Shown here in pieces: positions 40,478 to 47,503 of a stretch of DNA of 59,339 bases (positions within the stretch are counted from its first letter, which is position 1; each line of letters begins with the position of its first letter). The DNA is from Streptantibioticus rubrisoli (GTDB lineage: Bacteria; Actinomycetota; Actinomycetes; Streptomycetales; Streptomycetaceae): positions 1 through 59,339 of the forward strand of contig NZ_JANFNH010000045.1 in assembly GCF_024436055.1 (NCBI RefSeq), written 5' to 3'. Under the pieces are notes generated by a model, which did no database searches, was not told the origin of the DNA, and saw only the letters and a program-made list of their open reading frames with translations. A program made the position numbers and the translations under genes.

Positions 40478-41521
40478 GTGAGCGCCCAACACTCAGCCGC
40501 GCCGTCGGCGCCCCGGCTCCACATCGTGACGGGCAAGGGCGGGACCGGGAAGACCACGGTCGCCGCCGCCCTCGCGCTCGCCCTCGCGGACGAGGGGAAG
40601 CGCACCCTCCTGGTCGAGGTCGAGGGGCGCGGCGGCATCGCCCAACTCTTCGAGACCGAAGCGCTGCCCTACGAGGAGCGCAAGATCGCCGTGGCCCCCG
40701 GCGGCGGGGACGTCCACGCGCTGGCGATCGACCCCGAGTTGGCGCTGCTCGACTACCTGGACATGTTCTACAAGCTGGGCCGAGCGGGCCGGGCGCTCAA
40801 GAAGCTCGGCGCGATCGACTTCGCGACCACCATCGCCCCCGGCCTGCGGGACGTCCTGCTGACCGGCAAGGCGTGCGAGGCGGTGCGCCGCAAGGGCGCC
40901 TCCGGCGGACGGGCCTATGACGCGGTGGTGATGGACGCACCGCCGACCGGCCGGATCACCCGCTTCCTCAACGTCAACGACGAGGTGGCGGGCCTGGCCC
41001 GGTTCGGCCCGATATACAACCAGGCGCAGGCCGTCATGAGGGTGCTCAAATCGGCCGAGACCGCGGTGCACCTGGTGACGCTGCTGGAGGAGATGCCGGT
41101 CCAGGAGACCGTGGACGGCGTCGCCGAACTGCGCGCCGCCGGGCTGCCGGTGGGGGCCGTGGTGGTCAACATGCTGCGGCCCGCGGTACTGGACGAGGCG
41201 GCGGTGCGCATCGCCGCCAGCACTCAGCGGCGCGGTCAGCGTGCGGCGGTGGCCAAGGCGCTGTCGCAGGCAGGCCTCGGCGGCGCGCGCCGCGGCGGGC
41301 TGGCGGAACGGCTGGTGGACCCGCTACTGGAGCAGGCGCGCGAGCACGCCGAGCGGGTGGCGCTGGAGCGCCGGGAACGCGCCGAGATCGAGGAGCTGGG
41401 CCTGCCGACCTACGAACTGGAACTACTAGGCGACGGCATCGAGGTGGGCGGGCTGTACCGGCTGGCCAACTCGCTGCGGGAGCAAGGAATTTCGGGCACC
41501 CAGAGGGAGGGCGGGCGATGA
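40478..41521 (+). CDS. ArsA/GET3-like ATPase, first of a pair
   Basis: The 347-residue P-loop ATPase has Walker A GKGGTGKTT at residues 19-27, VEVEGRGGIAQLF as the A-prime region and VVMDAPPTGRITRFL as Walker B. It lacks a duplicated second half, so it should dimerise, presumably with the next gene's product. The pair corresponds to Rv3679-Rv3680, annotated as anion-transporting ATPases. No arsenite efflux (ArsB) gene is present, so arsenic resistance is not implied. ATGA overlap with the next gene. Confidence 0.9.
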   Translation: MSAQHSAAPSAPRLHIVTGKGGTGKTTVAAALALALADEGKRTLLVEVEGRGGIAQLFETEALPYEERKIAVAPGGGDVHALAIDPELALLDYLDMFYKLGRAGRALKKLGAIDFATTIAPGLRDVLLTGKACEAVRRKGASGGRAYDAVVMDAPPTGRITRFLNVNDEVAGLARFGPIYNQAQAVMRVLKSAETAVHLVTLLEEMPVQETVDGVAELRAAGLPVGAVVVNMLRPAVLDEAAVRIAASTQRRGQRAAVAKALSQAGLGGARRGGLAERLVDPLLEQAREHAERVALERRERAEIEELGLPTYELELLGDGIEVGGLYRLANSLREQGISGTQREGGR

Positions 41522-42855
41522 GCTGGCAGACACCGTCGCTCGACATCGATCCGCTGCTCGACGACCGCACGACGCGGATCATCGTGTGCTGCGGGTCGGG
41601 CGGGGTGGGCAAGACCACGACGGCCGCGGCGCTGGGGCTGCGCGCGGCCGAGCGCGGCCGAACCGTCGTGGTGCTGACCATCGACCCGGCGCGGCGTCTG
41701 GCGCAGTCGATGGGGCTCACCGAGCTGGACAACACACCGCGCCGGGTCGCGGGCATTGACGAGTCCGCGGGCGGTCAACTGCACGCGATGATGCTGGACA
41801 TGAAGCGGACGTTCGACGACATCGTCGTCCAGCACGCCGATCCGGAGCGCGCCCAAGCGATCTTGGAGAACCCTTTCTACCAGTCGCTTTCCGCCGGTTT
41901 CGCGGGCACGCAGGAGTACATGGCCATGGAGAAGCTGGGCCAGCTGCGGGCGCGCGACGAGTGGGACCTGATCATCGTGGACACCCCGCCGAGCCGCTCC
42001 GCGCTGGATTTCCTGGACGCTCCCAAGCGGCTCGGCTCGTTCCTCGACGGCAGGTTCATCAAGCTGCTGATGGCCCCGGCGAAGGCGGGCGGGCGTGCCG
42101 GGATGAAGTTCCTCAACGTCGGCCTGTCGATGATGACCGGTGCGCTGGACAAGGTGGTCGGCGCGCATCTGCTGCGGGACGTGCAGACGTTCGTGGCGGC
42201 GATGGACACGATGTTCGGCGGGTTCCGCAAGCGCGCGGACGCCACCTACCGGCTGCTGCAGGCCCCCGGTACGGCGTTCCTCGTGGTGGCGGCGCCGGAG
42301 CGGGACGCGCTGCGCGAGGCCTCGTACTTCGTGGAGCGGCTGGCGGCGGAGAGCATGCCGCTGGCCGGACTGGTGCTCAACCGGGTGCACGTCAGCGGTG
42401 CCGCGCGGTTGACGGCGGAACGGGCGCTGGCCGCAGCCGAGGCGTTGGAGGATCTGGCGGCGGAGTGGCCAGGCGCCGGAGATCCGGCGCCAAGTGCCGC
42501 CAGTGACACGGAAGTTGGGGATCCGGTGGACTGCCCCGCCGTAGAAAATCTTACCGACGACCGGATTGCCGATCGCGACACAGGGAAAGCTGAGGGCAAG
42601 ACCTTCACCGACGAGGTTTCGCTCACCGAGCCGGACGGGCTGCCCGCGGAGAGCCTGGCGGCGGGCCTGCTGCGGCTGCACGCGGAGCGGATGCAGGTGG
42701 TGGCCCGGGAGAGCCGCACCCGCGACCGTTTCGCCTCAGTGCATCCCGACGTGGCCGTCGCCGAAGTGGCCGCGCTGCCCGGTGACGTACACGACCTGGA
42801 GGGGCTACGTGCGGTGGGAGAGCGGCTGGCGAAGGGTCAGCCGGCCGCCGCGTAG
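41518..42855 (+). CDS. ArsA/GET3-like ATPase, second of a pair
   Basis: The 445-residue paralogue has Walker A CGSGGVGKTTTAAAL, LTIDPARRLAQSMGL and IVDTPPSRSALDFLD. A hydrophilic insert of about 45 residues (SAASDTEVGDPVDCPAVENL and on) interrupts the C-terminal third and is richer in A/T than its surroundings. The 3' end overlaps the 3' end of wblA by 19 bases on the opposite strand. It likely forms a heterodimer with the preceding protein. Confidence 0.9.
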   Translation: MSWQTPSLDIDPLLDDRTTRIIVCCGSGGVGKTTTAAALGLRAAERGRTVVVLTIDPARRLAQSMGLTELDNTPRRVAGIDESAGGQLHAMMLDMKRTFDDIVVQHADPERAQAILENPFYQSLSAGFAGTQEYMAMEKLGQLRARDEWDLIIVDTPPSRSALDFLDAPKRLGSFLDGRFIKLLMAPAKAGGRAGMKFLNVGLSMMTGALDKVVGAHLLRDVQTFVAAMDTMFGGFRKRADATYRLLQAPGTAFLVVAAPERDALREASYFVERLAAESMPLAGLVLNRVHVSGAARLTAERALAAAEALEDLAAEWPGAGDPAPSAASDTEVGDPVDCPAVENLTDDRIADRDTGKAEGKTFTDEVSLTEPDGLPAESLAAGLLRLHAERMQVVARESRTRDRFASVHPDVAVAEVAALPGDVHDLEGLRAVGERLAKGQPAAA

Positions 42856-43166
42856 TCCTCTTCCACGTCGCCGGTCAGCAGGCCCATGCTGCGCTCGTAC
42901 TCGTGGCGCGCTGTCTCCAGCAGTCTGCGCCAGGAGGTGACCGTCGGGCGGCGTCGCAGCAGTGCCCTGCGCTCGCGCTCGGTCATCCCACCCCAGACGC
43001 CGAACTCCACGCGGTTGTCGAGCGCGTCCGCCAGGCATTCGGTACGCACCGGACATCCCGTGCACACCGCCTTGGCCCTGTTCTGAGCCGCCCCCTGGAC
43101 GAACAGTTCGTCCGGATCTGTGGTGCGGCACGCGGCCTGCGCGCTCCAGTCGGTAACCCAGCTCAT
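42837..43166 (-). CDS. wblA: WhiB-family iron-sulfur regulator WblA
   Basis: The 109-residue protein from ATG 43166 (MSWVTDWSAQAACRTTDPDE) has AGGACGG about ten bases upstream; the frame continues to 43223 without another plausible ribosome binding site. The four [4Fe-4S] cysteines are Cys13, 35, 38 and 44 (C-X21-C-X2-C-X5-C), followed by the GVWGG turn and the basic ERRALLRRRP. In Streptomyces WblA controls sporulation and represses antibiotic production; the M. tuberculosis counterpart is WhiB4, next to the same ArsA pair and PBP. Confidence 0.95.
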   Translation of the reverse strand: MSWVTDWSAQAACRTTDPDELFVQGAAQNRAKAVCTGCPVRTECLADALDNRVEFGVWGGMTERERRALLRRRPTVTSWRRLLETARHEYERSMGLLTGDVEEDYAAAG

Positions 43167-43560
43167 GCTGGCGCCGTCCTCTCCCGAATCGGGGCTCCCC
43201 CACGGCGGCAGCGGCATATTCACCGTCGCCAGTTGAGGACGTTACGGAAGGAGGACACGACACAACAGCCCTTTCAGGCCCAATCTTGAATGGCCCGAAT
43301 GGACTATGCGTGCGCAACAGATCACCCAACGGAGTGAGCGTCTTTCAGAGCCGCTTCAAAGGTGACAACTCTGGGCATAACGGTCAGATTGCCAGGGATA
43401 TCACTCAAGTCCCCTGGCATATGCCGGAATCAGGACAGTTCTCATCACCCACAAGAGTGATGATGAGAGACAAACGCCGAACTCGCTGGTGTGTCGCCTT
43501 CCACAGATTAGGCGAACAGGTGGGCGTACGTCCTCAGAATCGACACGTAGGCTGCTCCTC
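43167..43560. promoter_or_regulatory. Divergent control region between wblA and the PBP gene
   Basis: These 394 bp have no gene and are relatively AT-rich, as expected for a heavily regulated developmental promoter. Two imperfect inverted repeats stand out: gccaggga / tcccctggc (43391-43418) and ctcatcac / gtgatgatgag (about 43441-43469). TAGGCT (43548-43553) ends seven bases before the PBP start codon. Binding proteins cannot be named from sequence alone. Confidence 0.55.
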
Positions 43561-45774
43561 ATGGCCTACAAGCGCTCCGGCGGGGGTCTGGCAACGACCC
43601 GGCAAGCCGCCAAGTTCCTCGGTGTCAGTGTGCTGTCCGGGGTGGTGCTGGCAGGCATCGCACTGCCCGCCACCGGCGCCATCGGGCTGTCCGCCAAGGG
43701 TACGGTGGCGGACTTCAACGCGCTGCCCGGCGAGCTCAAGCGCCCGCCGCTGAGCCAGGCGACCAAGATCCTGGACGCCAACGGAGGCCTGATCGCCACC
43801 GTCTATTCGCGCGACCGCACCTCGGTACCGCTCAGCGACATCAACCCCACCATGCAGCAGGCGATCGTCGCCATCGAGGACTCGCGCTACTGGCAGCACG
43901 GCGCGATCGACGTGAAGGGCATTCTGCGCGCGCTCAACACCAACGCGGCGTCCGGAGGCGTCTCCCAGGGCGCCTCCACGCTAACCCAGCAGTACGTCAA
44001 GAATGTGTTCATCGAGGAGGCCGGTGACGACCCGGACAAGGTCGCACAGGCCACCCAGCAGACCATCGGCCGCAAGATCAAGGAACTGAAGTACGCGATC
44101 CAGGTCGAGAAGGAACTGGGCAAGAAGCAGATCCTGGAGAACTACCTCAACATCACGTTCTTCGGCGAACAGGCGTACGGCATTCAAGCGGCTGCCCAGC
44201 GGTACTTCAGCACGGACGCCAAGGATCTGACCCTCGATGAAGCGGCCATGTTGGCCGGAATCGTTCAGTCACCCACCCACTACGACCCGCTCACCTATCC
44301 CAAGGAAGCGATCGAGCGCCGGAACACGGTGCTCAAGCGGATGGCCGAGCTCGGCGACATCACCCGGGCACAAGCCACCGAAGCCCAGGCCAAGCCGCTC
44401 GGGCTGAAGCCCAGCACCCCGAAGAACGGCTGCATCACCGCGGTCAGCGGCGCGGGCTTCTTCTGCGACTACGTGCGCGAGACGTTCCTGAACAACCCGG
44501 TCTTCGGCAAGACCCGGGAAGAGCGCGCCAAGCGCTGGACCACCGGCGGCATGACGATCAAGACCACGCTGGACCCGCAGGCCCAGCAGTCCGTCCAGGC
44601 CTCCATCAACAAGCACGTCTACCAGACCGACCAGGTGGCCACCGCCGTGACCCTGGTGCAGCCCGGCACCGGCAAGATCGTGGCGATGGGCCAGTCGCGG
44701 CCGTACGGGTTCGGGCAGAACGAGACCCAGATCAACTACAGCGTGGACCAGTCGATGGGCGGCGGCCGGGGCTTCCAGTCCGGTTCGACGTTCAAGCCCA
44801 TCACAGCCGCGGCGGCGATCGACGGCGGCACCGACCCCAACACCGTCTATCCGTCGCCGTATTCGATGCCCTACCCGAGCCCGGTCAACACCTGCGGCAA
44901 GCCCTGGGTCAACACCGACGGCTCGACGCTGTCCAACGAGGACAAGTCCGAGGTCGGGCCGATGAACATGCAGAAGGCCACGGCCCTTTCGGTCAACACC
45001 TACTACGTGCAGCTCATCAGCGACATCGGGGTCTGCCCGGTGACGACGATGGCGGGGAAGATGGGCGTGCACCGCGCGGACGGCAACCGGCTCGCCCAGG
45101 TGCCGTCGATCACCCTGGGCACCCAGGAGGTCAGCCCGCTGACGATGGCCGCGGCGTACGCCACCTTCGCCAACCACGGCGTCTACTGCACGCCGATCGC
45201 GATCGAGTCGATCACGGACGCCAACGGCAAGTCACTGCCGGTGCCGCAGAGTTCGTGCACCCAGGCCATGTCGGACAAGACCGCCGCGACGCTCAACACC
45301 CTCCTCAAGGGCGTGGTCGAGGACGGCACCGGCAAGCAGGCGGGGCTCTCCGACCGGGACAGCGCGGGCAAGACCGGTACCACGGACAGCCGTTACGCCG
45401 CCTGGTTCGTCGGCTACACCTCGAACATGGCCGGGGCGGTCTGGGTCGGCAGCCCCACGAAGAACCTGTCGATGACCAACATCACCATCGGTGGCGTCTA
45501 CCACGACAAGGTCTTCGGCGCCGACACCCCCGGTCCGATCTGGAAGGACGCCATGAGCGGCGCCCTGACGGGCACCCCGGCCGGGACGCTGCCCACCGTC
45601 CCGCTGGCAAGCAGCAACCCGCCGGGCGGCAACCAGAGCCCCAGCCCGAACCCCGGCAACCCGGGGGGCGACCAAGGGAAGGGCAAGGGGCACGGCCATG
45701 GCAACCCGTTCCCATGGCCGACGTTCAGCCTGCCGCCGGGACTGCTGGGCGGCGGCCAGAACGGCGGCAACTGA
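43561..45774 (+). CDS. Class A penicillin-binding protein (bifunctional transglycosylase/transpeptidase)
   Basis: The 737-residue envelope enzyme has one N-terminal hydrophobic anchor (about 20-42). The GT51 domain has AIEDSRYWQHGAIDVKGILR (catalytic Glu near 106), GASTLTQQ and the GEQAYGIQAAAQRYF stretch. The transpeptidase has SGSTFKP (Ser near 410), SVNTY and KTGTTDS (near 603). The C-terminal 60 residues are Pro/Gly/Asn/His-rich; there is no PASTA domain, unlike M. tuberculosis PonA2. ATG 43561 has no ribosome binding site but a -10-like hexamer at leaderless distance; the frame is open upstream to 43489. Confidence 0.95.
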   Translation: MAYKRSGGGLATTRQAAKFLGVSVLSGVVLAGIALPATGAIGLSAKGTVADFNALPGELKRPPLSQATKILDANGGLIATVYSRDRTSVPLSDINPTMQQAIVAIEDSRYWQHGAIDVKGILRALNTNAASGGVSQGASTLTQQYVKNVFIEEAGDDPDKVAQATQQTIGRKIKELKYAIQVEKELGKKQILENYLNITFFGEQAYGIQAAAQRYFSTDAKDLTLDEAAMLAGIVQSPTHYDPLTYPKEAIERRNTVLKRMAELGDITRAQATEAQAKPLGLKPSTPKNGCITAVSGAGFFCDYVRETFLNNPVFGKTREERAKRWTTGGMTIKTTLDPQAQQSVQASINKHVYQTDQVATAVTLVQPGTGKIVAMGQSRPYGFGQNETQINYSVDQSMGGGRGFQSGSTFKPITAAAAIDGGTDPNTVYPSPYSMPYPSPVNTCGKPWVNTDGSTLSNEDKSEVGPMNMQKATALSVNTYYVQLISDIGVCPVTTMAGKMGVHRADGNRLAQVPSITLGTQEVSPLTMAAAYATFANHGVYCTPIAIESITDANGKSLPVPQSSCTQAMSDKTAATLNTLLKGVVEDGTGKQAGLSDRDSAGKTGTTDSRYAAWFVGYTSNMAGAVWVGSPTKNLSMTNITIGGVYHDKVFGADTPGPIWKDAMSGALTGTPAGTLPTVPLASSNPPGGNQSPSPNPGNPGGDQGKGKGHGHGNPFPWPTFSLPPGLLGGGQNGGN

Positions 45775-45796: not shown

Positions 45797-45814
45797 GTGT
45801 TTCACGTGAAACAC
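45797..45814. promoter_or_regulatory. parS chromosome-partitioning site
   Basis: GTGTTTCACGTGAAACAC is a perfect 18-bp palindrome containing the ParB recognition sequence TGTTTCACGTGAAACA (45798-45813) without mismatch. It lies in the short gap between the convergent PBP and yqeY genes. Streptomyces chromosomes carry about 20 such sites around oriC that load ParB for segregation during sporulation. I found no second copy in the window. Confidence 0.95.
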
Positions 45815-45830
45815 GCGTTCTAACGGCGTG

Positions 45831-45861
45831 TGGGGCGCCCCCGGAGTCCGGGGGCGCCCCA
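45831..45861. terminator. Bidirectional terminator between PBP and yqeY genes
   Basis: tggggcgcccccgga and tccgggggcgcccca form a perfect 15-bp stem with essentially no loop, placed between converging genes and 16 bp from parS. Confidence 0.75.
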
Positions 45862-45879
45862 CCGCTTCTCGAAGTCGGA

Positions 45880-46344
45880 TCAGCTGCCCAGGTGCCGCTT
45901 GACCTCGGCGGCCACCCGGCCGCCCTCGGCACGACCGGCGACCTTCTGGTTGGCCAGCTTCATGATCGCGCCCATCGCGCGCGGCCCCTCGTTGCCCTGC
46001 GCGGCGGCCTCGGCCACCGCTTCGGCGACCACGGTGGCCAACTCCTCGTCGCTGAGCGGCTTGGGCAGGTACTCGGCGAGCACCTCGCCCTCCGCTCGCT
46101 CCCGCTCGGCGGACTCCGCACGACCGCCCTTGTCGAAGGCCTCGGCCGCCTCACGGCGCTTCTTGGCCTCGCGGGCGATCACCTTCTCCACCTCGGCGTC
46201 GGACAGCTCACGGGCCTCGGTACCCGCGACCTCTTCCTTGTGAACGGCGGTGATGGTGAGGCGGAGCGTGGACGCGCGCAGTTCGTCGCGCGTCTTGATG
46301 GCCGCGGTGAGATCTTCCTGGAGCCGGGCTTTGAGCGTGGTCAT
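45880..46344 (-). CDS. GatB/YqeY domain protein
   Basis: This 154-residue helical protein starts MTTLKARLQEDLTAAIKTRD and contains LRLTITAVHKEEVAG, YLPKPLSDEEL and GAIMKLANQKVAGRAEGG, matching the YqeY family (related to the tail domain of GatB, a tRNA-amidotransferase subunit). Its cellular role is not established. It is divergent from the metallophosphoesterase across about 77 bp. Confidence 0.92.
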   Translation of the reverse strand: MTTLKARLQEDLTAAIKTRDELRASTLRLTITAVHKEEVAGTEARELSDAEVEKVIAREAKKRREAAEAFDKGGRAESAERERAEGEVLAEYLPKPLSDEELATVVAEAVAEAAAQGNEGPRAMGAIMKLANQKVAGRAEGGRVAAEVKRHLGS

Positions 46345-47411: not shown

Positions 47412-47485
47412 CGGGGTGTAGCGCAGCTTGGCAGCGCGCTTCGTTCGGGACGAAGAGGCCGTGGGTTCAAATCCCGCCACCCCGA
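47412..47485 (+). tRNA. tRNA-Pro, anticodon CGG
   Basis: The 74-nt gene folds as a cloverleaf: acceptor stem CGGGGTG/CACCCCG, D-arm with GCGCAGCTTGGCAGCGC, anticodon stem CTTCG/CGAAG with loop TTCGGGA (anticodon CGG), T-arm GTGGGTTCAAATCCCGC and discriminator A. CCA is not encoded. A TAGAGT at 47392-47397 is a likely -10. It reads CCG, a very common Pro codon in this genome. Confidence 0.97.
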
Positions 47486-47503
47486 CTGGTGAAACACCTG
47501 ATC

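What the first reader, a model, noticed from the sequence alone, without database searches (positions are those of the whole stretch)
45797..45814. Perfect parS site between two convergent genes
The 18-bp palindrome matches the ParB site with no mismatch and lies in an intergenic gap, 16 bp from a strong 15-bp terminator hairpin. It is the only copy in 59 kb. It marks the window as part of the origin-proximal segregation domain and shows that a ParB load point can sit inside a terminator-flanked convergent gap.
Basis: partly seen in the sequence, partly recalled or inferred. Interest (0 to 1): 0.7.

Follow-up and report, generated by a model that had tools for sequence, protein, structure and literature searches.

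The report
Outlying chromosome-segregation site near a terminator
A short DNA landmark that bacteria use to pull their chromosomes apart sits, intact and conserved in the three known genomes of one small genus, in the gap between two genes probably about 200 kb from the replication origin; it looks like an ordinary site of a well-known system in a recently acquired place.

Summary
An 18-bp perfect palindrome with the canonical ParB site GTTTCACGTGAAAC lies at 45797-45814, once in the window, between convergent penicillin-binding-protein and yqeY-like genes, 15 bp from a long hairpin. The genome has 15 perfect sites, none with one mismatch, none of the reversed control. Twelve lie 4-53 kb from dnaA on its parAB side. 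In the closest genome with both on one contig this site is about 208 kb from oriC, on the side opposite the cluster: an outlier, not part of the origin core. All three held genomes of the genus have exactly 15 sites, at matching places. The hairpin gap is old (69 of 77 gaps), but 74 of 76 evaluable gaps in named relatives lack parS; the two that have it belong to the genus. So a lineage-specific parS was most likely gained inside an old terminator gap. Over 183 sites parS looked enriched in convergent gaps, but a test fixed beforehand on fresh genomes missed its threshold (5 of 14 units, p 0.05-0.09; 2 of 8 at new places). A new member of a known kind; ordinary, with one weak general hint. ParB binding here is inferred.

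The parts
45797..45814 (.). 18-bp perfect palindrome containing the parS site
   Evidence: Direct read and search
45799..45812 (.). 14-bp parS core GTTTCACGTGAAAC
   Evidence: 15 perfect copies in the genome, 0 with one mismatch; orthologous site in 3 of 3 genomes of the genus; core 14/14 in the three pairwise comparisons while ungapped columns of the rest of the gap are 67-84% identical
45815..45825 (.). 11-bp block next to parS, invariant in the three genomes of the genus; meaning unknown
   Evidence: Alignment A1; in 77 gaps exact only in own, L018 and L019, with L017 and L094 at 2 mismatches and no other at 2 or fewer
45830..45862 (.). Strong hairpin, presumed bidirectional transcription terminator without T-run
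   Evidence: Gap folds with z -5.76; both arms differ together in S. ferralitis; hairpin in 69 of 77 orthologous gaps; terminator scan negative
43630..45774 (+). Penicillin-binding protein with transglycosylase and transpeptidase domains (left convergent gene; start may be upstream, 43489)
   Evidence: Pfam Transgly and Transpeptidase; NCBIfam PBP1A family, below its cut-off
45880..46344 (-). YqeY-like protein (right convergent gene)
   Evidence: Pfam YqeY, E 6.9e-42
42837..43223 (-). WhiB-family regulator; ORF start about 2.6 kb from parS (position like wblA of S. coelicolor: recalled)
   Evidence: Pfam Whib, E 8.4e-26; no NCBIfam match

Best explanation
It is a functional, origin-distal ('satellite') parS site of the chromosomal ParABS system in a member of the GTDB genus that also holds Streptantibioticus ferralitis (Streptomycetaceae). 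A CTP-bound ParB dimer recognises the palindrome, closes into a clamp and slides a few kb to either side, adding a small ParB patch, and perhaps an SMC loading point, on the chromosome arm opposite the main parS cluster. The site most likely arose in the ancestor of the genus inside a pre-existing convergent terminator gap, where it costs neither coding sequence nor promoter. Shown here: the sequence, its rarity, clustering of the set, parA and parB in the same genome, orthologous conservation in three genomes, absence in the outgroup gaps examined, wide occurrence of the hairpin. Inferred from established ParB biology: binding, sliding, SMC loading, contribution to segregation.
For: 15 perfect cores in 7.26 Mb, 0 with one mismatch, 0 reversed controls at zero mismatches. 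12 of 15 on the dnaA contig, 4-53 kb from dnaA. ParB with N-terminal, HTH and dimerisation domains, ParA beside it; ParB matches solved ParB/Spo0J chains. Each of the 3 held genus genomes has exactly 15 sites; grouped by flanking or containing gene, 13 of the 15 match on both flanks and 2 on one flank. Core 14/14 against 76/91, 60/90 and 70/90 for the rest of the gap. Window collinear with G002:C74:30181-88370 in 11 blocks at 90-94%; site there at 75177, dnaA-dnaN gap at 283219-284036. Outgroups: 78 of 80 YqeY loci have no match within 3 mismatches in the 600 bases after the YqeY stop, three of them cut short by a contig end; the 24-mer with its flank is exact in 3 of 297 family genomes, all of this genus.
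Against: No binding data exist for this organism. The invariant block beyond the core (45815-45825) is not explained by parS. The genus is represented by three genomes only. The distance to oriC is read in a relative, because the window is a whole separate contig. Seven more places in the genome have two mismatches, close to the five of the reversed control, so weak sites cannot be told from chance.
Confidence: 0.88

Rival explanations
1. The palindrome is only a second RNA hairpin, i.e. the terminator of the PBP gene, that happens to spell parS.
For: It lies 24 nt after the PBP stop codon and folds into a stem of up to 9 pairs in the predicted RNA.
Against: A terminator should conserve pairing, not letters: the neighbouring hairpin differs on both arms together in S. 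ferralitis while the parS core does not differ at all. The same 14 letters occur 15 times, 12 of them near dnaA. A strong hairpin 15 bp away already serves the gap.
Confidence: 0.05
2. A neutral relic: a parS that ParB no longer needs.
For: It is far from the cluster and absent from nearly all relatives examined; site numbers vary widely in the family (0-33).
Against: The core is intact in 3 of 3 genomes while 16-33% of the compared rest of the gap differs; absence in 74 of 76 outgroup gaps speaks for gain, not decay.
Confidence: 0.06
3. The site mainly regulates neighbours: ParB spreading from it reaches the WhiB-family gene about 2.6 kb away and tunes it during sporulation.
For: S. venezuelae ParB signal extends up to 2.5-3 kb from parS (PMC12511625, passages); ParB represses promoters next to parS in P. 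aeruginosa (PMC7022226, passages).
Against: The WhiB ORF start is at the limit of that range; relatives keep the PBP-YqeY gap without parS; no expression data.
Confidence: 0.06

Closest known systems
Origin-proximal parS sites of Streptomyces coelicolor and S. venezuelae
   Same: Same kind of 14-bp palindrome, many sites per chromosome, most near oriC, bound by ParB in ChIP-seq in S. venezuelae (PMC4852455 and PMC12511625, passages)
   Different: This site is about 208 kb out (measured in a relative) on the side opposite the cluster and was found in one small genus only
Minority left-arm parS sites of streptomycetes
   Same: 20.14% of predicted parS lie left of oriC in 20 closed genomes (PMC8743542, section 16 read)
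   Different: The section and passages read do not describe this gap or the age of single sites; its supplement was not read
Origin-distal Spo0J sites of Bacillus subtilis
   Same: Chromosomal ParB sites far from the origin (title seen in a reference list)
   Different: Different phylum; sites not compared here

Membership tests
Chromosomal parS (ParABS) | Match to the palindromic core GTTTCACGTGAAAC | tested here: met
   Exact
Chromosomal parS (ParABS) | More copies than chance, clustered near oriC in the same genome | tested here: met
   15 copies, 12 within 53 kb of dnaA; reversed control 0
Chromosomal parS (ParABS) | This individual site is close to oriC (typical, not required of every site) | tested here: not met
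   About 208 kb in collinear G002. This refutes 'part of the origin core', not 'is a parS'
Chromosomal parS (ParABS) | ParB and ParA genes in the genome | tested here: met
   ParB_N, HTH_ParB, ParB_C; AAA_31 ParA beside it
Chromosomal parS (ParABS) | Conserved at the orthologous place | tested here: met
   3 of 3 genus genomes; not in the 74 other evaluable gaps of named relatives
Chromosomal parS (ParABS) | ParB binds it in vivo | not testable with these tools
   Needs ChIP-seq
Intrinsic terminator (neighbouring hairpin) | Stable GC-rich hairpin after both stop codons, kept as a structure | tested here: met
   (69 of 77 gaps with a stem of 9 bp or more, one mismatch allowed; 68 of 77 above all 20 mononucleotide shuffles)
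Intrinsic terminator (neighbouring hairpin) | T-run after the stem | tested here: not met
   0 found. That actinobacterial terminators often lack it is recalled; so I call it only a presumed terminator

The most novel reading that the evidence does not exclude
Streptomycetaceae preferentially keep or gain ParB loading sites in convergent, terminator-bearing gaps, so that centromere placement follows transcription direction; the present site would be a dated example (an old terminator gap, a parS new in one genus).
Probability: 0.17. Interest if true: 0.5.

Novelty: new member of a known kind. Interest (0 to 1): 0.2.

Why it matters
It offers a natural before-and-after comparison: the same convergent terminator gap with parS (one genus) and without (its relatives). 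That makes it possible to ask what a single satellite parS on the other chromosome arm does to ParB and SMC distribution. It also shows that a parS in a contig does not by itself place that contig in the origin core. If parS sites really prefer convergent gaps, centromere placement would be tied to transcription direction; the evidence for that is weak so far.

Tried and rejected
Origin-core membership of the window: rejected by the 208 kb distance and opposite side in G002. In five near-complete Streptomyces chromosomes the YqeY locus is 268-374 kb from oriC, on the side opposite parB in 4 of 5 and on the same side in one (G009) (YqeY places, dnaA, dnaN and parB places).

General rule that parS prefers convergent gaps. 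Discovery set: 183 sites in 18 genomes, joined by shared flanking genes into 37 neighbourhood units labelled by majority: 15 co-directional, 10 convergent (one of them a 1:1 tie), 9 intragenic, 3 divergent. Convergent share 10 of 28 intergenic units, against 9.9% of intergenic bases (p 2e-4), 9.0% of low-GC 14-mers (p 1e-4) or 16.1% of gaps (p 0.009). Without the window's genus and the two outgroup genomes: 7 of 18 (p 0.003, 0.001, 0.016); with the strictest gene-calling threshold: 7 of 23 (p 0.015, 0.003, 0.059). This test was devised after seeing the window's genome. A replication rule was then written down before its data were fetched: 5 of 14 units (p 0.051, 0.094, 0.087), 2 of 8 at places new to the set, and divergent gaps not avoided (4 of 14): not replicated. 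Pooled 10 of 33 (p 0.002, 0.002, 0.035). Genes were called by a home-made GC-frame script, not by a published caller. Dropped rows: of the seven genomes, G004 (3 of 11 sites listed) and G008 (none of 9 listed) were left out; in the replication only 3 of the 33 sites of G178 were used; of the genomes listed only ten were fetched for the discovery set. Two palindrome rows were discarded because runs of N counted as palindromes; the low-GC null was redone without N.

L271 (one mismatch to the 24-mer) holds no PBP or YqeY match and is not the orthologous gap. Of 80 relatives 4 gaps could not be judged: three contigs end there (L027, L079, L085) and L033 shows no PBP beside YqeY. The listing was capped, so the exact 24-mer was counted again at zero mismatches. 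Jakimowicz 2002 and Livny 2007 are not held. Rfam found only a tRNA.

Full report
Observation. Its core begins 24 bp after the stop of a penicillin-binding protein gene (+) and ends 67 bp before the stop of a yqeY-like gene (-). A 33-base hairpin at 45830-45862 stands 15 bp to the right, between parS and yqeY; the gap folds far better than its shuffles (z -5.76). No T-run follows it and the terminator scan finds nothing.

What it is. The whole genome (7.26 Mb, 103 contigs; the window is contig C44) holds 15 exact cores, none with one mismatch, and seven with two mismatches; the reversed control gives five places at the same tolerance. At zero mismatches the reversed control is 0 in every genome row. 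Twelve of the 15 lie on contig C60, 4-53 kb from dnaA and all on one side of it, with parA and parB among them. The ParB has three ParB domains and matches solved ParB/Spo0J chains. So the site is a parS by the sequence tests available; binding was not tested.

Place on the chromosome. The window is collinear with 58 kb of a 483-kb contig of genome G002, in 11 blocks. There the orthologous site is at 75177 and the dnaA-dnaN gap at 283219-284036: about 208 kb. The parB gene and a 12-site cluster are at 289.8-338 kb, on the other side of oriC. The site is therefore an outlier on the minority arm. A survey of 20 closed streptomycete chromosomes found 20.14% of predicted parS left of oriC and 79.86% right (PMC8743542, section 16 read). 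S. venezuelae has 16 parS within about 200 kb; S. coelicolor has 23 central and one near an end (PMC4852455, passages).

Age. Grouped by flanking or containing genes, 13 of the 15 match on both flanks and 2 on one flank. In the orthologous gap the core is 14/14 in each pair, while the ungapped rest is 76/91, 60/90 and 70/90 identical. Among 80 named YqeY loci, 78 show nothing within three mismatches near the YqeY stop (three are cut short by a contig end); the other two are the same two genus members. The 24-mer with its flank is exact in 3 of 297 family genomes, all in the genus. The hairpin, by contrast, is widespread: 69 of 77 gaps, the window's own included, have a stem of at least 9 bp, 68 of 77 above all 20 shuffles. 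In S. ferralitis both arms differ together. The simplest history is a parS gained inside an existing terminator gap in the ancestor of the genus. An 11-bp block beside it (45815-45825) is also invariant in the three genomes, and in the other gaps comes no nearer than 2 mismatches; I cannot explain it.

How it works. From established knowledge, ParB-CTP nucleates at parS, closes into a clamp and slides; in S. venezuelae the signal extends up to 2.5-3 kb to each side and is nearly lost without SMC (PMC12511625, passages). Here such a patch would cover the PBP and yqeY genes and end near the start of a WhiB-family gene about 2.6 kb away. That the gap shows no sigma-70-type promoter match and lies at gene ends makes it a harmless place for a new site; this is inference. 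Workers place tracking parS cassettes in convergent gaps for that reason (PMC9712426 gives the reason; PMC6315104 does it; passages). Against a further benefit: in Borrelia, ParB binding falls when the bound genes are transcribed against the direction of spread (PMC9712426, passages), and here both neighbours are transcribed toward the site.

Is the convergent gap special? In this genome 8 of 15 sites, in 5 gaps, are in convergent gaps (one of the eight overlaps a called gene end by 11 bases). Over 183 sites in 18 genomes the convergent share of intergenic neighbourhood units was 10 of 28, about three and a half times its share of intergenic bases, and held at most settings. A replication with a rule fixed beforehand gave 5 of 14, p 0.05-0.09, only 2 of 8 at new places, and no avoidance of divergent gaps. 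I therefore do not claim the rule. Three searches of the held library with convergent-gene terms (listings) gave no paper that states it in what I saw; I looked at passages of four of the papers they list and not at the others. The library lacks the key 2002 paper.

Verdict. Real, correctly read as parS, over-read as a marker of the origin core. A new member of a known kind, with a tidy evolutionary history and one weak general hint.

Noticed in passing
GTDB genus g69 of Streptomycetaceae (G161, G164, G170, G176, G184, G188): Six of the 13 genomes of this genus have no perfect GTTTCACGTGAAAC while the other seven have 2-13; they are the only 6 of 101 family genomes without one. A diverged parS or ParB is possible.
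   Followed up: no
G000:C7:388 (L111), G001:C45:44537 (L109), G002:C74:208104 (L098): A perfect parS lies inside a coding sequence in all three genus genomes, the containing proteins being related; in G000 it is a 2-oxoacid dehydrogenase E2 component.
   Followed up: partly
window 45815-45825: An 11-bp block immediately beside parS is invariant in the three genus genomes and found in no other gap within one mismatch.
   Followed up: partly
G009 (record of S. himastatinicus ATCC 53653): The YqeY locus lies on the same side of oriC as parB, unlike in the four other Streptomyces chromosomes measured: an inversion about the origin or an assembly matter. It also has no convergent-gap parS among its 9 sites.
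   Followed up: no
window 40478-42855: Pair of ArsA/Get3-like ATPases matching NCBIfam BagA and BagB above cut-off, next to the WhiB-family gene.
   Followed up: no
window 47412-47486: tRNA-Pro (CGG) gene.
   Followed up: no
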